Source: Archaeoglobus sp.
Lineage (GTDB): Archaea; Halobacteriota; Archaeoglobi; Archaeoglobales; Archaeoglobaceae
DNA length: 64,000 bases
Direction of reading: 5' to 3'
Assembly: GCF_017656475.1 (NCBI RefSeq)
Contig: NZ_JACDNT010000003.1
Coordinates: forward strand, 1 to 64,000
Every line of letters starts with the position of its first letter. Position 1 is the stretch's first letter. Shown here one piece after another: positions 5,595-45,008 of this stretch. The translations under genes were made by a program, and so were the position numbers. The notes beneath the pieces are model-generated. The model worked only from the letters and a program-made list of their open reading frames with translations. It was not told the DNA's origin and did no database searches.

Positions 5595-7112
5595 ATGAAG
5601 TTCAGGATTAAGACCTTACCTCTAAGGACGGAAAGGATAGCTGTAGTCCTCAGTCAGGATGATGCGGCTGAGCTTGGATTACTTCCCGGAGACAGGGTGA
5701 AGGTTAGTTACGATGGCAAGTCATTCGTGGCTGAGGTTGAAGTATCTCAGGAGTTTATCGGCAGTGGAGAGGCTGGGGTTTGCAGCTTCACCGCTGAAGC
5801 GTGCAGCCTTACAGAGGAATGTCTTGTTGAAATAGTCCCATTCGCAAGACCAAAATCCGTTGAATACATAAGAAAGAAGCTTGATGGGGCCAAATACGAA
5901 AGAGAGGAGATAAAGGACATAATAAGTAGCATATCTTCGGACATACTTTCAGACATCGAAATTTCAGCTTTCATCCTCGCCAACGAGATTGTGGGAATGC
6001 TGAACGATGAGATTCAATGGATGATTGAGGCGATGGTTGAAGTAGGCAAGAAAATCGTTTTCGAAAGGGGAACTGTTGTGGACATGCACAGCGTTGGAGG
6101 GTTGCCAGGGAACAGGTTCTCGTTAATTGCCGTCCCAACAGTTGCGGCAGCGGGGCTTCTGATTCCCAAAACAGCAAGCAGAGCAATAACCTCGGCCAGT
6201 GGAACTGCTGACACAATGGAAGTTCTGGCGAACGTGAACCTGAGCGTTGATGAGATAAAGGAGATTACTGAGGAGGTTGGAGGGGTTATAGCCTGGAACG
6301 CCGCTACCGGAATAGCTCCGGCGGATGAAAAAATAATAAGGGTTGAATATCAGCTCGAACTCAGTCCCAAGCCTCACCTCATGGCGAGTGTGTTATCCAA
6401 AAAGCTGGGTTGCGGGGCAAAGTTTGTTGCTATCGACATCCCGGTTGGGAGTAAGGCCAAAATCGAGAACGTGGATGTTGGAAGGAGTTTTGCAAACTCC
6501 ATGATGGAGATTGGCAGAAATCTTGGTCTGAAGGTTGCGACTGCGTTGACTGACGGCTCTCAACCACTTGGGAGGGCAATAGGGCCAGCACTTGAAGCTA
6601 AGGAGGTTCTGGAAGTTATGGAAAAGAAGCATGAAGGAGACCTGCTTGAAAAGGCTCTGGGCATAGCGGGAATCCTCTTTGAGATGACCGGAATTGCTGC
6701 CAACGGCTACCAGCATGCGAGAAAGATATTCGAGAGCGGTAAGACACTTGAGAAGTTCAGAGAGATTGTTGCCGCCCAGGGGGGAGATGAAAACATTAAG
6801 GCTGAGGATATTGCTGTTGGAGACAAAACCTACACTCTCACATCCTCCGTTGAGGGTGCGGTGGTTTCGGTAAACAATAAAAGCATAGTGAAAATAGCAA
6901 GAACAGCAGGCGCTCCCAAGGACAAGGGAGCGGGAGTTTATGTGCACAAGAAGAGAGGTGAGGTTGTAAAAGCTGGTGACCCCCTTCTCACGATATATGC
7001 CGAGAAGGAGTGGAAGCTTGACAACGCGATTGAGGTTGCGAACACCAAACAGGCTTTCGAGATATCTGGTGTGATTATCGAGAGGTACACGATGGGAAGG
7101 TGGTGGTCATGA
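5595..7112 (+). CDS. deoA: AMP phosphorylase, tandem copy 1
   Basis: A 505-aa member of the thymidine phosphorylase superfamily with the ~80-residue N-terminal domain typical of archaeal AMP phosphorylases. The family converts AMP and phosphate to adenine and ribose-1,5-bisphosphate, feeding R15P isomerase and form III RubisCO. The nucleoside-phosphorylase core and C-terminal pyrimidine-phosphorylase domain are complete. The phosphate-binding motif reads VDMHSVGG, with Met where the usual motif has Lys (DKHS), while the later TDGSQPLGRAIGP looks canonical. Two long blocks are identical in DNA to the next gene. It overlaps copy 2 by ATGA. AAGTTAATATTC about 25 nt upstream is a possible TATA element. 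Confidence 0.85.
   Translation: MKFRIKTLPLRTERIAVVLSQDDAAELGLLPGDRVKVSYDGKSFVAEVEVSQEFIGSGEAGVCSFTAEACSLTEECLVEIVPFARPKSVEYIRKKLDGAKYEREEIKDIISSISSDILSDIEISAFILANEIVGMLNDEIQWMIEAMVEVGKKIVFERGTVVDMHSVGGLPGNRFSLIAVPTVAAAGLLIPKTASRAITSASGTADTMEVLANVNLSVDEIKEITEEVGGVIAWNAATGIAPADEKIIRVEYQLELSPKPHLMASVLSKKLGCGAKFVAIDIPVGSKAKIENVDVGRSFANSMMEIGRNLGLKVATALTDGSQPLGRAIGPALEAKEVLEVMEKKHEGDLLEKALGIAGILFEMTGIAANGYQHARKIFESGKTLEKFREIVAAQGGDENIKAEDIAVGDKTYTLTSSVEGAVVSVNNKSIVKIARTAGAPKDKGAGVYVHKKRGEVVKAGDPLLTIYAEKEWKLDNAIEVANTKQAFEISGVIIERYTMGRWWS
6138..6262 (+). repeat. Identical block A, copy in deoA 1
   Basis: These 125 nt are identical base for base to 7652-7776. The block encodes TVAAAGLLIPKTASRAITS and on to DEIKE. 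Sequence on both sides diverges at once, including at synonymous positions. Confidence 0.95.
6663..7027 (+). repeat. Identical block B, copy in deoA 1
   Basis: These 365 nt are identical base for base to 8180-8544. The block encodes the C-terminal domain from IAGILFEMTG to WKLDN. It is followed by near-identical sequence for about 20 nt, then by unrelated tails. Confidence 0.95.
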
Positions 7113-8623
7113 TTTTCAAAGCTGTAAGGGTTCCGTTCAAGTCGGGGAGGTATGCGGTAATTCTGAATGAAGAGGATGCAAGCGAGCTGGGAGTCAGAGA
7201 GGGAGACAGGGTGAGGGTAAGGTTTGGCAGGACAGGAGTCGTTGCGACTGTTCAGATAACGAGAGAAATCGTTGAGAGAGGGTTTGTTGGATTAACCGAC
7301 CTCGCTTCGAGAGAACTCGGAATATCGGATGGTGTTGAAGTTGATGTTTATCCATCGCCAAAACCGAAAAGCGTTGAACTGATTAAGAAAAAGACGCGCG
7401 GTGAAAAGCTAAATCAGGACGAAATCAGGAAAATTGTTGAAGACATCACTAACAACGCTCTGAGCGAGGTGGAGCTGACGGCATTTGTCATTTCTTCGAT
7501 GCTTCGCGGAATGGACTTTGACGAAATAGAGTGGTTGACAAGGGCTATGATTGAAACCGGCGAGAGGATAGAGTTTGACAGAGGGACAGTTGTGGACAAG
7601 CACAGCATTGGGGGTGTGCCGGGCAACAAGATATCTCTGCTCATCGTTCCTACAGTTGCGGCAGCGGGGCTTCTGATTCCCAAAACAGCAAGCAGAGCAA
7701 TAACCTCGGCCAGTGGAACTGCTGACACAATGGAAGTTCTGGCGAACGTGAACCTGAGCGTTGATGAGATAAAGGAAATTACAGAGAAAGTTGGTGGAGT
7801 TATAGCCTGGGGCGGAGCAACGAACATCGCTCCAGCGGATGACAAGATAATCAGAGTTGAGCATCCGCTTTCCATCGACCCCCGACCCCAGCTTCTTGCC
7901 AGCGTCATGGCCAAAAAAGGCTCGGTGGGGGCAAAGCACGTAGTCATCGACATTCCTGTTGGAGAGGGGGCGAAGATAGAGAAAATGGATGTGGGCAGGT
8001 CATTATCGAACGACTTCATAGAGCTTGGCAGGAGACTTGGTTTGAATGTCATGACGGCCATCACCTACGGAGGTCAGCCGATCGGAAGAGCGATAGGGCC
8101 TGCAATCGAGGCCAAGGAAGCCCTTAAAACAATGGAGGACAGACATGGCCCCTCAAGTCTGGTTGAAAAGTCCCTCGGTATAGCGGGAATCCTCTTTGAG
8201 ATGACCGGAATTGCTGCCAACGGCTACCAGCATGCGAGAAAGATATTCGAGAGCGGTAAGACACTTGAGAAGTTCAGAGAGATTGTTGCCGCCCAGGGGG
8301 GAGATGAAAACATTAAGGCTGAGGATATTGCTGTTGGAGACAAAACCTACACTCTCACATCCTCCGTTGAGGGTGCGGTGGTTTCGGTAAACAATAAAAG
8401 CATAGTGAAAATAGCAAGAACAGCAGGCGCTCCCAAGGACAAGGGAGCGGGAGTTTATGTGCACAAGAAGAGAGGTGAGGTTGTAAAAGCTGGTGACCCC
8501 CTTCTCACGATATATGCCGAGAAGGAGTGGAAGCTTGACAACGCAATTGAGGTTGCAAACACCGAGAGGCCAATCGTGGTTTCGGGAATGGTGCTGGAAG
8601 TTCACGGAAAAAGAGGTGTTTGA
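7109..8623 (+). CDS. deoA: AMP phosphorylase, tandem copy 2
   Basis: A 504-aa paralogue of the preceding gene. I chose the ATG at 7109 rather than the GTG of the ORF track because MIFKAVRVPFKSGRYAVIL then aligns without gaps to the start of copy 1, and the ATG overlaps the upstream TGA. This copy keeps the phosphate-site Lys (VDKHSIGGVPGNK) but reads TYGGQPIGRAIGP where copy 1 has TDGSQP. Outside the identical blocks the two proteins are only moderately similar, so the pair is an old duplication homogenised locally. It is co-transcribed with citrate synthase, whose start lies one base after this stop. Confidence 0.85.
   Translation: MIFKAVRVPFKSGRYAVILNEEDASELGVREGDRVRVRFGRTGVVATVQITREIVERGFVGLTDLASRELGISDGVEVDVYPSPKPKSVELIKKKTRGEKLNQDEIRKIVEDITNNALSEVELTAFVISSMLRGMDFDEIEWLTRAMIETGERIEFDRGTVVDKHSIGGVPGNKISLLIVPTVAAAGLLIPKTASRAITSASGTADTMEVLANVNLSVDEIKEITEKVGGVIAWGGATNIAPADDKIIRVEHPLSIDPRPQLLASVMAKKGSVGAKHVVIDIPVGEGAKIEKMDVGRSLSNDFIELGRRLGLNVMTAITYGGQPIGRAIGPAIEAKEALKTMEDRHGPSSLVEKSLGIAGILFEMTGIAANGYQHARKIFESGKTLEKFREIVAAQGGDENIKAEDIAVGDKTYTLTSSVEGAVVSVNNKSIVKIARTAGAPKDKGAGVYVHKKRGEVVKAGDPLLTIYAEKEWKLDNAIEVANTERPIVVSGMVLEVHGKRGV
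7652..7776 (+). repeat. Identical block A, copy in deoA 2
   Basis: Partner of 6138-6262, in direct orientation 1514 nt away. Confidence 0.95.
8180..8544 (+). repeat. Identical block B, copy in deoA 2
   Basis: Partner of 6663-7027, in direct orientation 1517 nt away. Confidence 0.95.
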
Positions 8624-8624
8624 A

Positions 8625-9743
8625 ATGAAGGAAGGATTAGAAGGTGTGATTGCATGTCAAACCACAATTTCGAGGATTGCCCTTGAGAACGGCAGGGCAG
8701 TTCTTGAGTACAGAGGTTACGATATCCGCGACCTTGCGAGAAAGGCGTGCTTTGAGGAGGTGGTTTACCTTCTGCTTTACGGAGAACTGCCCAAAAGATA
8801 CGAGCTTCAGGACTTCAAGATTGAGCTGGCTGAAAGAAGAGAGCTCCCTCCGCAGATAATAGGGCTGCTCACTCATCTACCCCCTTACACTCATCCGATG
8901 GTTGTACTGAGAACGGCAACGAGCTATCTTGGTAGCCTTGACAAAAAAATAAATGTGAAAACAAGGGAGGAGACCTTTAACAAGGCAAAAGATTTGATTG
9001 CCAAATTTCCGACAATTATTGCTTACTACCACAGAATCAGAACAGGGAGGAATATTATCCCACCTGCTCTCGAATTCAGCCACGCTGCAAACTTTCTGTA
9101 CATGCTTCACGGAGAAGAGCCCTCTAAAACCGCTGAAAGGGCTCTGGACATGGATTTGATCCTCCATGCCGAACATGAGCTGAATGCATCAACCTTTGCA
9201 GCAAGAATTGCTGCCTCAACTCTTGCCGACATTTATGCATGCGTTGTTGCCGCCACAGGAACATTAATGGGGCCACTGCACGGTGGAGCAGCGCAGGAAG
9301 TCATGAAAATGCTCAGAGAGGTTGCATCTCCAAGAAGGGCTGATGAGTACGTGAGAAGAAAAGTGGAGGCTGGAGAGAGAATAATGGGCTTCGGACACAG
9401 AGTTTACAGAGGTGTGATTGACCCAAGGGCCGAGTTGCTGAGATACCTTGCCAGAAGGCTTGCTGCAGAGGGATCGACGAAGTGGTTCGAGATCAGCGAG
9501 TCCATTGCGAAGGCCGCTTACAAGTACAAGAAGTTACTTCCAAACGTTGACTTCTATTCTGCTAGCGTTTACGCCAATCTTGGCATTCCAGACGACCTAT
9601 TCGTTAACATCTTTGCGATGGGTAGAATTTCCGGGTGGACGGCTCATATCATAGAGCAGTACGAGAACAACAGGCTCATAAGACCCAGAGCGGAGTATGT
9701 TGGGGAGAAGGGGAAGAAGTTTGTCCCCATTTCCAAGAGGTGA
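8625..9743 (+). CDS. citZ: Citrate synthase
   Basis: A 372-aa type II citrate synthase, condensing acetyl-CoA with oxaloacetate. Key motifs are LEYRGYDIRDLA near the N-terminus, LMGPLHGGAAQEV with the first active-site His, and IMGFGHRVYRGVIDPRA with the second His and substrate-binding Arg. The ORF track extends upstream into deoA copy 2. The ATG at 8625 gives the normal archaeal length and has an AAAGAGGTG ribosome-binding site about 8 nt ahead. It follows deoA copy 2 directly, so the phosphorylases and citrate synthase probably share an mRNA. Confidence 0.93.
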   Translation: MKEGLEGVIACQTTISRIALENGRAVLEYRGYDIRDLARKACFEEVVYLLLYGELPKRYELQDFKIELAERRELPPQIIGLLTHLPPYTHPMVVLRTATSYLGSLDKKINVKTREETFNKAKDLIAKFPTIIAYYHRIRTGRNIIPPALEFSHAANFLYMLHGEEPSKTAERALDMDLILHAEHELNASTFAARIAASTLADIYACVVAATGTLMGPLHGGAAQEVMKMLREVASPRRADEYVRRKVEAGERIMGFGHRVYRGVIDPRAELLRYLARRLAAEGSTKWFEISESIAKAAYKYKKLLPNVDFYSASVYANLGIPDDLFVNIFAMGRISGWTAHIIEQYENNRLIRPRAEYVGEKGKKFVPISKR

Positions 9744-29950: not shown

Positions 29951-30541
29951 ATGAGAAAAATGCCATTGGGTATATTGGGAGCAATGGTGGCTCTGAGCCT
30001 TGTCATTGGTGTAAGCGCTACCTTTAGTGACTACAACGCAGATAGAAGCATCCACTGGAACATAACAACTGACGATACGGAGCTGATAGACCTGAAACCT
30101 ATTCAGCCCTATGCTTATATCGCTGACAACGGAGAGCTTGTAGTTGACTTCTCGCCCAACAACCCGAATTATCCGGGTTACGGCGATGGAATTAGCCCGG
30201 CAAGCGAGTACAACTTCAACGAGGTTTTTGCAGTGAGCAACCATCTCTGGGAAAACATGCCAATAGTTGTGAGAATTACATCATCCAACACGCACGTTGA
30301 ATTCTACTCACACGAGGGTGGAGTTTATGCGGTGGATGGTGGTGCAGCAGCAACAGCTTCAGACAGTGCCAGGGATGATGTGTGCTTCGTTCTTGGGCCA
30401 AACTCAGAGAAGAAGATTGGAATGGACCTCAGCGCTAACGGAGACAGTCCGGGAGATGTGTGGGATTTGACAATGACAGTGAAGGCCTACAGGCTTGGAA
30501 CAGAGCCTGCTGAGCTGAGTAACTGTGGACAGGTGATATAA
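29951..30541 (+). CDS. Secreted DUF1102-like protein 1, candidate fibre subunit
   Basis: A 196-aa protein with an N-terminal signal peptide (MRKMPLGILGAMVALSLVIGVSA) and probable cleavage before TFSDYNADRSIHWN. The FSDYxAxR segment just after the cleavage site resembles TasA/camelysin-type subunits processed by SipW. The mature part is beta-rich, with IDLKPIQPYAYI, a PNNPNYPGYGDGIS motif and a single Cys pair late in the chain. It closely parallels the next gene. It is probably secreted and assembles or coats the cell. A strong GAGGTG ribosome-binding site suggests high expression. Confidence 0.7.
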   Translation: MRKMPLGILGAMVALSLVIGVSATFSDYNADRSIHWNITTDDTELIDLKPIQPYAYIADNGELVVDFSPNNPNYPGYGDGISPASEYNFNEVFAVSNHLWENMPIVVRITSSNTHVEFYSHEGGVYAVDGGAAATASDSARDDVCFVLGPNSEKKIGMDLSANGDSPGDVWDLTMTVKAYRLGTEPAELSNCGQVI

Positions 30542-31071
30542 TGAAAAAGTTAGCAGGTCTTCTGCTTCTGATTGTTGGCTTAACGCTGACGATAGGGGCG
30601 GGAGCAAACTTTAGGTATTACGAAGCTGAAAGGAGCATAACCGTGAACATTACGTCAGATGACAACGAGTTCATCGATCTAACTCCATTGCAACCCTATG
30701 CCTACCTGAATAATGGAAAGTTGACCATTGAGATGTCACCCAACAACCCGAATTATCCGGGTTATGGTGACGGAATGAGCGTCAACACAATATACGTGTT
30801 TGAAGAGATGTTCAACGTAAGCAACGAGCTTTGGGAGAATGAAAATGGTGATTTCCCGGTTTGCGTGCAGATATCGATAAGTGATGGTGTTGAAGTCTTT
30901 GCCGGGGACTACGACAACCCAATTAGTGGTCCAGGAACGCAATTGCAGTTTACCGTGTACCATGACGAGCCAGTTCCAGTTGGATTCGTATTCAACAACA
31001 CCGACAAAGAAATGGGCGCACAACATGTTCAGATGAGTATTGTTGCCGTAGCAGGAGCTTGCGGTGAGTAA
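30541..31071 (+). CDS. Secreted DUF1102-like protein 2, candidate fibre subunit
   Basis: A 176-aa paralogue of the preceding protein. The signal peptide (MKKLAGLLLLIVGLTLTIGAGA) is followed by NFRYYEAERSITVNITSDD, then IDLTPLQPYAYL and SPNNPNYPGYGDGMS, aligned with protein 1 through most of their length. Two Cys occur in the mature part. Its ATG overlaps the stop codon of gene 1 by one base, so the two are translationally coupled and probably made in set proportion. Likely roles are main and minor subunit of one polymer, but which is which cannot be told. Confidence 0.7.
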   Translation: MKKLAGLLLLIVGLTLTIGAGANFRYYEAERSITVNITSDDNEFIDLTPLQPYAYLNNGKLTIEMSPNNPNYPGYGDGMSVNTIYVFEEMFNVSNELWENENGDFPVCVQISISDGVEVFAGDYDNPISGPGTQLQFTVYHDEPVPVGFVFNNTDKEMGAQHVQMSIVAVAGACGE

Positions 31072-31105
31072 GCTCCCAACTTTAATTTTTTTATGAGGAA
31101 AGCAA

Positions 31106-31564
31106 ATGAAAAAAATCATAATTGCGATAATATTACTTCTCATAGCTCTCGGATTGAGAGCTCCAGCCATATCTGTCATGGCTGCAGATACCATTAGTGG
31201 AATTTTGCTTTACTCTACCTCACCCTACGCAAATAACGAGAACAACCTGACGATAGATATTACCGAAAACAACCCGAACTATCCGGGCTATGGCAATGGC
31301 CTGAGTCCGGGGTCAGTTTACAGATTTGATGACCTTTTAACCATAGAAAACAGCAACAGCTTTCCGGTTTGCGTTGAACTCGAGTCTCAGAGTGATCTGG
31401 TAAAATTTTACACTGACGGAGACTCTTTGCCAGCAATCAGCTTCACACTCGCTGTGAATGAAAGCATGTCTGTGGGTGTGGAGTTCAACGCAGCAGAGCT
31501 TGGACTGATGGAGGAGTATTACAGCATTCAGATACTGGAAGGCGGTTGCAATGAAACTGTCTGA
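31106..31564 (+). CDS. Secreted DUF1102-like protein 3, short variant
   Basis: A 152-aa relative of the two preceding proteins. It has an N-terminal hydrophobic signal (MKKIIIAIILLLIALGLRAPAISVMA) and lacks the FxxYxAxR segment seen in its neighbours, but keeps ENNPNYPGYGNGLSPGSVYRFDDLLTI and the following FPVCVEL. It could be a capping, adaptor or anchor subunit of the same assembly. Its 3' end overlaps the signal peptidase gene by 14 nt. Confidence 0.65.
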   Translation: MKKIIIAIILLLIALGLRAPAISVMAADTISGILLYSTSPYANNENNLTIDITENNPNYPGYGNGLSPGSVYRFDDLLTIENSNSFPVCVELESQSDLVKFYTDGDSLPAISFTLAVNESMSVGVEFNAAELGLMEEYYSIQILEGGCNETV

Positions 31565-42587: not shown

Positions 42588-45008
42588 ATGGAAATCACGT
42601 TAAAAGTAAATCAGGCGTATCCGAGCGATTCGGGAAGAGGAATTGCCAGATTGGATCCAGATACAATGTTAAAACTTCAAATTTCTCCCGGAGATATAAT
42701 AGAGATAGAGGGAGCCAGGAAAACCGTTGCAAAAGTATGGAGGGCTCCAAAGAGGGACTGGGGGAAGAATATCATCAGAGTTGATAGGTTTATTAGGGAG
42801 AATGCAGGAGTTGGTGTTGGAGATGTTGTAAAGGTAAGAAGAGTTGATTATCAGCCTGCAAAAACCGTAATCCTCGCACCACTTAAGAAGATGGATTTAA
42901 GAATTTACGGAGTTGATATTGGGGAGTATCTCAAGCATCAATTCCTTAAGAGGCCAGTTGTTGAGGGAGATTTAGTCCCACTCGTTGGATCTCCGGCCCT
43001 CTCAGGATTTGGAAGGTACAACCAGCAGAACCAGGCCGTGGTTTTTGTTGCAGTCAAGACCGAGCCTAAAGGGCCTGTTGTCATCGATGAAACCACGAAG
43101 GTCGTTTACAGGGACAGGCCGGCAAAGGGGTTTGAGAGATTCGGAAAGGCCGGAATCACATACGAGGACATAGGAGGTCTCAAGGAAGAACTGCAGAAGG
43201 TAAGGGAAGTTATAGAACTGCCTTTGAGGTATCCAGAGCTTTTCCAGAGACTCGGAATTGACCCACCGAAGGGTGTGCTGCTCTACGGCCCGCCCGGAAC
43301 GGGAAAGACGCTGATAGCCAAGGCTGTGGCAAATGAGATTGGGGCGAGCTTCTTCACCATTAACGGTCCGGAAATCATGAGCAAGTTCTACGGAGAGTCC
43401 GAGCAGAGGCTAAGGGAAATCTTTGAAGAGGCTAAGGAGAATGCTCCGTCGATAATATTCATAGATGAGATTGATTCAATTGCCCCTAAGAGAGAGGAAG
43501 TTACTGGAGAGGTCGAGAGAAGAGTTGTGGCACAGCTTCTAACTCTGATGGATGGGCTGGAGGAAAGGGGGCAGGTCATAGTCATCGGAGCCACGAACAG
43601 AATTGATGCAGTCGATCCGGCTCTGAGAAGGCCCGGCAGGTTTGACAGGGAGATTGAAATTGGTGTGCCTGACAGAGAGGGCAGATACGAGATTTTCCAG
43701 ATACACACGAGGAACATGCCTCTTGAGGCCAAATATAGCAGAGAGTTTGTTCTCGATGCGATTGAAAGGTATAGAAGACAAATCGACGATCCGGAGTTGA
43801 TTAAGAACCTTGATTTCCTTTACGACGAGATCAAGAACTCGGAGAAGGAGGAAGAGGTCAGAAGCGCTGTGAAAAACCTCTTACCGCAGGAAGTTATCGA
43901 CGAGCTTGAGGTTGAGATAACGAAGGCGATGCTTCGCAGTCTTGCTGACCAAACTCATGGATTCGTTGGGGCGGACATTGAGGCTCTGTGTAAAGAGGCT
44001 GCCATGAAAGCTTTGCGTAGATATTTACCCCAAATAGACCTCAACGAGGACGAGATTCCGCTGGAACTCCTCGAATCAATCAGGGTTACATGGAATGACT
44101 TCATGGATGCTTTGAGGGAAATCGAACCGTCAGCGATGAGAGAGGTGTTTGTGGAGATTCCGAAGGTTACATGGGACGATGTGGGTGGACTTAAAGACGT
44201 TAAGAGAGAAATAATAGAGGCTGTTGAGTGGCCTCTTAAGTTCCCGGAGAAGTTCAGGAAGTTCGGAATCAAGCCACCGAAGGGAGTGCTGCTATTCGGG
44301 CCACCCGGAACAGGAAAAACGCTGATAGCCAAGGCTGTGGCGAATGAGAGCGAGGCGAACTTTATAAGCATTAAAGGCGGGCAGATTCTGAGCAAGTGGC
44401 TCGGAGAGAGTGAAAAAGCGGTGAGAAAAATTTTCAGAAAGGCAAGGCAAGTCGCTCCATGTATAATCTTCTTTGACGAGATTGACGCCATAGCACAGAT
44501 GAGAGGAATAGATGAGGGCAGCAGGGCTGTTGAGAGAGTATTGAACCAACTTCTTACCGAGATGGACGGGCTTGAGGAGCTTCATGGGGTTGTAGTAATA
44601 GGTGCGACCAACAGACCCGATATCCTTGATCCAGCGTTGCTCAGGCCCGGCAGGTTTGACAGGCTCGTTTACGTCAGGCCACCAGACAAAAGGAGCAGAC
44701 TGGCGATTTTCAAGATACACACGAGGGACATGCCGCTCTCAGACGATGTTGACCTTGAGGAGCTTGCTGAACTCACCGAGGGCTATGTCGGTGCAGACAT
44801 AGAGGCAATATGCAGGGAGGCAGTGATGCTGGCGATCAGAGAGAACATCAATGCAGAGAAGGTGGAGATGAGGCACTTCTTAGAGGCTTTGAAGAAGATA
44901 AAGCCGAGCGTCAACGAGACGATGCTAAACTTCTACGAGAGATTCGAGGAAAGAATGAAGACGGAAAGAATGCAGGTCACAACAAAGCCCTTCGTTGGCT
45001 ACGGTTGA
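42588..45008 (+). CDS. cdc48: Cdc48/VAT-type AAA ATPase with D1 lid insertion
   Basis: An 806-aa hexameric unfoldase. It has an N-domain (residues ~1-190), D1 with Walker A GPPGTGKT (~230) and Walker B FIDEID, and D2 with Walker A GPPGTGKT (~570) and Walker B FFDEID; both arginine-finger regions ([16 protein letters not shown]) are present. Between LEAKYS and [15 protein letters not shown] in the D1 lid there is an extra helical, charged segment of about 65 residues (~385-450) absent from the usual MPL...D..ELA sequence. The chain ends KPFVGYG. ATG 42588 follows a GGTGGGTGAT site; the track's TTG adds five residues. Confidence 0.93.

What the first reader, a model, noticed from the sequence alone, without database searches (positions are those of the whole stretch)
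6138..8544. Local gene conversion between tandem AMP phosphorylase genes
Blocks of 125 nt (6138-6262 = 7652-7776) and 365 nt (6663-7027 = 8180-8544) are identical at every base, including third positions, while surrounding coding DNA differs strongly. Selection on protein cannot explain synonymous identity. Recent gene conversion or unequal exchange in segments is the simplest explanation. The two blocks bracket a divergent region, so two tracts or one tract with later change in between are possible.
Basis: seen in the sequence. Interest (0 to 1): 0.7.

Follow-up and report, generated by a model that had tools for sequence, protein, structure and literature searches.

The report
Tandem enzyme genes repeatedly partly homogenised
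Two neighbouring, long-diverged archaeal AMP phosphorylase genes keep copying the same two stretches of DNA onto each other in species after species while the rest of each gene stays different; this is a clear case of partial gene conversion, an already known process.

Summary
Gene conversion is right, but the picture is larger than one local event. Eight other Archaeoglobaceae genomes, two apparently finished, carry a tandem pair with near-identical blocks at the same two places, each genome with its own block sequence. Outside the blocks the genes group by copy (one old duplication in seven pairs); inside they group by genome. This is recurrent, segment-limited concerted evolution, not explained by protein constraint nor, in general, by assembly collapse. 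The window adds a lineage-specific event: 26 of 26 diagnostic bases in block 2 of gene 1 are gene-2 type, so gene 2 overwrote a segment that gene 1 keeps in its relatives. That detail rests on one draft assembly. "One tract with later change" is rejected: the region between is old orthologous sequence. Why only these segments are exchanged is inferred: probably shared structural parts, with diverged catalytic parts protected by selection or lack of homology. Precedents: thermosome subunits, RF1/RF2, and 26 catalogued prokaryotic genes that do not include AMP phosphorylase.

The parts
5595..7112 (+). Gene 1: AMP phosphorylase paralogue 1 (505 aa), the divergent copy
   Evidence: TIGR03327 662 bits (cut-off 535); ORF
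7109..8623 (+). Gene 2: AMP phosphorylase paralogue 2 (504 aa from the ATG at 7109; a GTG at 7100 is also possible), the conserved copy next to citrate synthase
   Evidence: TIGR03327 791 bits; closest solved relatives 4ga5/4ga4
7109..7112 (+). ATGA overlap of gene 1 stop and gene 2 start (likely translational coupling)
   Evidence: sequence ...GTCATGATT...
6138..6262 (+). Block 1 in gene 1 (residues 182-222), identical to 7652-7776
   Evidence: paralogue dS 0
7652..7776 (+). Block 1 in gene 2
6663..7027 (+). Block 2 in gene 1 (residues 357-477), identical to 8180-8544
   Evidence: paralogue dS 0
8180..8544 (+). Block 2 in gene 2
6840..6914 (+). Overwritten patch within block 2 of gene 1: 26 of 26 diagnostic bases are gene-2 type, replacing the gene-1 form (HAAKEGYVREIDIAxLNEI) kept in relatives
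6263..6662 (+). Middle of gene 1, not converted: paralogue dS about 2.15, groups with gene 1 of other species
7777..8179 (+). Middle of gene 2, not converted
5595..6137 (+). 5' part of gene 1, not converted (synonymous sites saturated against gene 2)
8625..9743 (+). Citrate synthase-like gene downstream; conserved neighbour used for synteny. Name is by inspection; no family search was run on it

Best explanation
The two genes come from a tandem duplication older than the split of the Archaeoglobus-type genera sampled here. Ever since, homologous recombination between the neighbouring copies has copied short stretches without reciprocal exchange (gene conversion), but it persists only in two segments, residues about 182-225 and about 357-480. 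Shown: same-genome identity inside the segments against copy-wise orthology outside; recurrence in every pair examined; gene 2 to gene 1 overwrite of the 6840-6914 patch in the window assembly. Inferred: recombination starts within the islands because only there enough continuous identity remains, which makes them self-maintaining. Conversions into the N-terminal, base-binding and middle parts are blocked by divergence or removed by selection because the copies have specialised there. The islands code for parts of the alpha/beta and C-terminal domains that both copies can share, perhaps inside one mixed oligomer.
For: Exact blocks and permutation p = 2e-4. In nine genomes paralogue dS in blocks 1 and 2 (excluding the patch) is 0-0.25, except 0.74 in block 1 of G006, against 1.2 to saturated in the 5' and middle parts for the seven Archaeoglobus-type pairs; most between-species comparisons of the same copy are saturated in the blocks too. 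Flank tree: gene-1 clade SH-aLRT 100, gene-2 clade 97. Block tree: all nine pairs sit together by genome. Tests reject a gene-1 clade in the blocks (p-AU 1.3e-4; each block separately far lower) and reject WIN_1+WIN_2 in the flanks (1.3e-6). Synteny shows positional orthology. G001 (2,178,400 bp in one contig, the size I know for A. fulgidus VC-16) and G013 (2,076,931 bp, one contig) show it in finished genomes. In draft relatives 14 of 17 contig ends inside this gene fall in the two blocks (p = 3e-5), and two G046 contigs end in an exact 116-nt overlap within block 1. Direction.
Against: Nothing contradicts conversion itself. The reason for segment restriction is not shown. The complete identity of block 2, and above all the overwritten patch, rest on one draft assembly (92 contigs), where bubble removal in a short-read assembler could fake it. 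That is an unlikely cause for block 1: G006 has no exact match over 18 nt there, and its block-1 paralogue dS (0.74) exceeds the WIN-G006 orthologue dS (0.35-0.45). One pair, G003, is only marginal in the longest-run test (p = 0.04). The duplication in G012/G013 looks separate, so not all nine pairs share one origin.
Confidence: 0.93

Rival explanations
1. Assembly artefact: the two copies were collapsed to one consensus in the repeats, so the identity is exaggerated or false.
For: The genome is a 92-contig draft. Many drafts of relatives break or join exactly at these blocks, and four relatives show single chimeric genes whose switches lie inside the blocks.
Against: Finished-size genomes G001 and G013 show the same blocks, slightly eroded. 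A relative-like block 1 has no long shared k-mers to collapse on. Both copies with distinct flanks lie in one 91-kb contig.
Confidence: 0.06
2. Strong purifying selection on protein or nucleotide sequence (for example overlapping antisense ORFs or an RNA element) keeps both copies identical.
For: Long antisense ORFs overlap the blocks; block 1 is well conserved in protein.
Against: Synonymous sites in the blocks differ freely between species, mostly to saturation. Single-copy relatives are only 63% identical in residues 357-412, less than the middle (81%), yet paralogues are 94% identical there and 58% in the middle. Overall correlation is Spearman 0.16, not significant.
Confidence: 0.01
3. 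Independent recent tandem duplications in each species, with fast divergence outside the blocks.
For: Same-genome clustering in blocks; G012/G013 do look like a separate duplication.
Against: Outside the blocks the seven Archaeoglobus-type pairs form one gene-1 and one gene-2 clade, with conserved synteny.
Confidence: 0.02
4. Unequal crossing-over (deletion and re-duplication) rather than non-reciprocal conversion homogenises the blocks.
For: Single chimeric genes (gene-1 start, gene-2 end) with switches inside block 1 (G049, G051) or block 2 (G004, G005) are what a deletion crossover would leave.
Against: The window pair keeps both distinct flanks and both distinct middles, which a crossover cycle would not preserve. 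The chimeras come from draft assemblies and may be assembly jumps.
Confidence: 0.08

Closest known systems
Gene conversion between thermosome (archaeal chaperonin) subunit paralogues, Archibald & Roger 2002 (cited in PMC4530459; not read here)
   Same: Archaeal paralogues with segment-wise conflict between paralogue and orthologue signal
   Different: Different protein; tandem AMP phosphorylase pair; whether a mixed oligomer forms is unknown here
RF1-RF2 domain 3 gene conversion (PMC4530459)
   Same: Functionally diverged paralogues exchange only the segment that does the same job in both; direction can be inferred
   Different: RF genes are bacterial and the two reported cases are old; here many repeated events, still recent at synonymous sites
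Long-lasting recurrent concerted evolution genes in prokaryotes, 26 genes incl. tuf, mtrA (PMC6053082)
   Same: Same-species paralogues more alike than orthologues, shared synteny, repeated over many species
   Different: Phosphorylase and Archaeoglobus do not occur in that paper's text; here only about a third of the gene is concerted
Thermococcus kodakarensis AMP phosphorylase (PDB 4ga4/4ga5/4ga6)
   Same: Same family as both proteins
   Different: That protein is one enzyme; here two diverged tandem copies

Membership tests
AMP phosphorylase (TIGR03327) | Score above the curated equivalog cut-off (535) | tested here: met
   662 and 791 bits
AMP phosphorylase (TIGR03327) | Helical-bundle, alpha/beta and PYNP C-terminal domains | tested here: met
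   PF02885, PF00591, PF07831 in both proteins
AMP phosphorylase (TIGR03327) | Enzyme activity of each copy | not testable with these tools
   Gene 1 changed residues invariant in single-copy relatives (K164, K174), but the T. kodakarensis enzyme also lacks the first (DVHS)
Concerted evolution by gene conversion | Paralogues of one genome group together in the segment | tested here: met
   Nine of nine pairs in the combined-block tree; p-AU
Concerted evolution by gene conversion | The same genes group by copy outside the segment | tested here: met
   Gene-1 and gene-2 clades of the seven Archaeoglobus-type pairs
Concerted evolution by gene conversion | Shared synteny, excluding independent duplication | tested here: met
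   Citrate synthase-like gene downstream in all loci checked; G012/G013 duplication probably separate
Whole-gene long-lasting concerted evolution (type of PMC6053082) | Whole paralogues homogenised | tested here: not met
   Only two segments; flanks saturated
Hetero-oligomeric paralogue pair | Physical co-assembly of both products | not testable with these tools
   Only indirect hints: ATGA overlap, both genes induced together in A. fulgidus (PMC3949148)

The most novel reading that the evidence does not exclude
The two products form one mixed AMP phosphorylase assembly. Recurrent conversion is retained by selection because it keeps the shared structural module matched between subunits, while the catalytic and N-terminal modules specialise (gene 1 possibly a regulatory or altered-specificity subunit). 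Conversion would then act as a long-term mechanism for co-evolving an interface.
Probability: 0.2. Interest if true: 0.65.

Novelty: new member of a known kind. Interest (0 to 1): 0.45.

Why it matters
It adds a clean archaeal case of segment-limited, recurrent concerted evolution in a gene pair that I did not find described, with a conserved map of where conversion is and is not kept. It can be used to separate mechanism (homology length) from selection in keeping conversion out of specialised domains. It also warns that trees, annotation and short-read assemblies of this locus are misled by the blocks: family assemblies break or may fuse there, so 'single-copy' AMP phosphorylases in some bins may be false chimeras.

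Tried and rejected
A search for an orphan gene-1-type patch elsewhere in the window genome found none; this does not decide between conversion and bubble removal. GC-biased conversion: GC3 is not raised in the blocks. Protein constraint as cause of the islands: rejected. Calling gene 1 catalytically dead from the loss of K164: dropped, because the T. kodakarensis AMP phosphorylase has V there. AlphaFold model of gene 1: too poor to use (mean pLDDT 56), so no fold search was made. Direction of block 1: only two clear sites, both gene-2 type; mixed against G006 alone, so left open. Reading J Bacteriol 2012 (JB.01335-12): not held. Nishitani 2013 on the T. kodakarensis structure was seen only as cited in PMC8376864.

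Full report
OBSERVATION. The two blocks are exactly as described: 6138-6262 equals 7652-7776 (125 nt) and 6663-7027 equals 8180-8544 (365 nt), with no difference and no other exact match of 16 nt or more between the genes. The genes are 5595-7112 and 7109-8623, overlapping by ATGA. Both score above the curated cut-off for AMP phosphorylase, TIGR03327, and gene 2 matches the T. kodakarensis AMP phosphorylase structures. Inside the blocks all 162 codons are identical; outside, only 41-60% of same-residue codons are. Paralogue dS is 0 in the blocks and 2.15 or saturated in the 5' part and middle; a permutation of synonymous sites never approached the observed run.

RELATIVES. The family search found the tandem pair complete in G001, G003, G006, G012, G013, G048, G050 and G053, and single genes in many others. 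In every pair long exact matches between the copies concentrate in the same two places: residues about 180-250 and 350-480. In G012 the converted stretch is longer, and in G006 block 1 has decayed. So the pattern is shared in position, while the block sequence is specific to each species.

TREES. A protein tree of the unconverted parts puts the seven Archaeoglobus-type gene-1 sequences in one clade (SH-aLRT 100) and the seven gene-2 sequences in another (97); the G012/G013 copies form their own group, probably a separate duplication. A DNA tree of the blocks pairs the two copies of every genome, nine of nine. Holding gene 1 as a clade in the blocks is rejected (p-AU 1.3e-4, and for each block alone), and holding the two window copies together outside the blocks is rejected (1.3e-6). 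In single-block trees a few placements are weak, notably G006 block 1, as expected from its older divergence. Synteny is constant: AMP phosphorylase then the citrate synthase-like gene in single-copy relatives, gene 1 - gene 2 - citrate synthase in pairs. This is concerted evolution of two segments within genes that otherwise evolve as orthologues.

THE WINDOW EVENT. At sites where G006 and G001 agree on a gene-1 and a gene-2 state, gene 1 of the window is gene-1 type at 152/156 (5' part), 66/70 (middle) and 24/24 (3' end), but gene-2 type at 26/26 in block 2, positions 6840-6914. At protein level a run of 13 diagnostic residues (416-433) has switched to gene-2 type; relatives carry HAAKEGYVREIDIA-type sequence there. 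Gene 2 therefore overwrote gene 1. The window and G006 differ by orthologue dS of about 0.2-0.5 in most segments, while G006 block-1 paralogue dS is 0.74, so the block-1 homogenisation in the window is younger than their split.

ASSEMBLY. Collapse cannot explain the general pattern, which is present in finished-size genomes. It remains a possible cause for the exact extent of block 2 in this 92-contig draft. The blocks do trouble assemblers: 14 of 17 contig ends inside this gene in family genomes lie in them (binomial p = 3e-5, a test made after seeing the pattern), and two contigs of G046 overlap by exactly 116 nt in block 1. G004, G005, G049 and G051 show single genes that begin as gene 1 and end as gene 2, switching inside a block; crossover deletion and assembly jump cannot be told apart here.

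WHY THESE SEGMENTS. Protein constraint does not predict them: single-copy relatives are 63% identical in residues 357-412 and 81% in the middle, while the paralogues are 94% and 58%. Of 98 columns invariant in the single-copy set, none is altered in most gene-2 sequences and 5 are altered in most gene-1 sequences; in the companion list of columns invariant in gene 2 plus single copies, 12 are altered in gene 1, 11 of them outside the blocks and one in the patch. Block 1 lies in the alpha/beta domain and block 2 spans its end and most of the C-terminal PYNP domain. The T. kodakarensis enzyme forms very large multimers through its C-terminal and N-terminal parts (PMC8376864). The A. fulgidus genes annotated as thymidine phosphorylase AF1341 and AF1342, which I take to be this pair, are induced together in mid-log phase (PMC3949148), so neither looks like a silent pseudogene. 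The most likely mechanism is homology-dependent conversion in self-maintaining islands, with specialised parts protected by divergence and selection. A mixed oligomer that profits from matched shared parts is possible and untested.

KNOWN CONTEXT. Partial conversion between diverged paralogues is known for RF1/RF2 (PMC4530459) and thermosome subunits (Archibald & Roger 2002, as cited there). Long-lasting concerted evolution is catalogued for 26 prokaryotic genes that do not include this one (PMC6053082). I found no description of it for AMP phosphorylase in the open library searched. It is a new, well-supported member of a known kind.

Noticed in passing
L004 (G005), L007 (G004), L099 (G049), L100 (G051): Single AMP phosphorylase genes that start as gene 1 and end as gene 2, with the switch inside block 2 (G004, G005) or block 1 (G049, G051): real crossover deletions or assembly chimeras.
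   Followed up: partly
window 30144-31306: Three copies of a ~53-nt repeat (68-85% alike) about 0.5 kb apart, one reading of which would encode NNPNYPGYG-like peptides.
   Followed up: no
window 43574-44663: Two 76-nt stretches 72% alike, 1014 nt apart, reading like the two ATPase domains of a CDC48-type AAA+ protein; looks ordinary.
   Followed up: no
L005 and L007, upstream of gene 1: About 3 kb more DNA lies between the metallo-beta-lactamase-like gene and the AMP phosphorylase gene than in the window.
   Followed up: no
window 6084-6086 and 7598-7600: Residue 164 of the DKHS motif is M in gene 1 and K in gene 2; gene-1 orthologues vary here (M, T, L, S) while single-copy relatives keep K.
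   Followed up: partly
L090 (G047) 1556-1655: A 100-nt run of N lies inside the AMP phosphorylase gene between residues about 205 and 388, a scaffold gap reaching from block 1 to block 2.
   Followed up: partly
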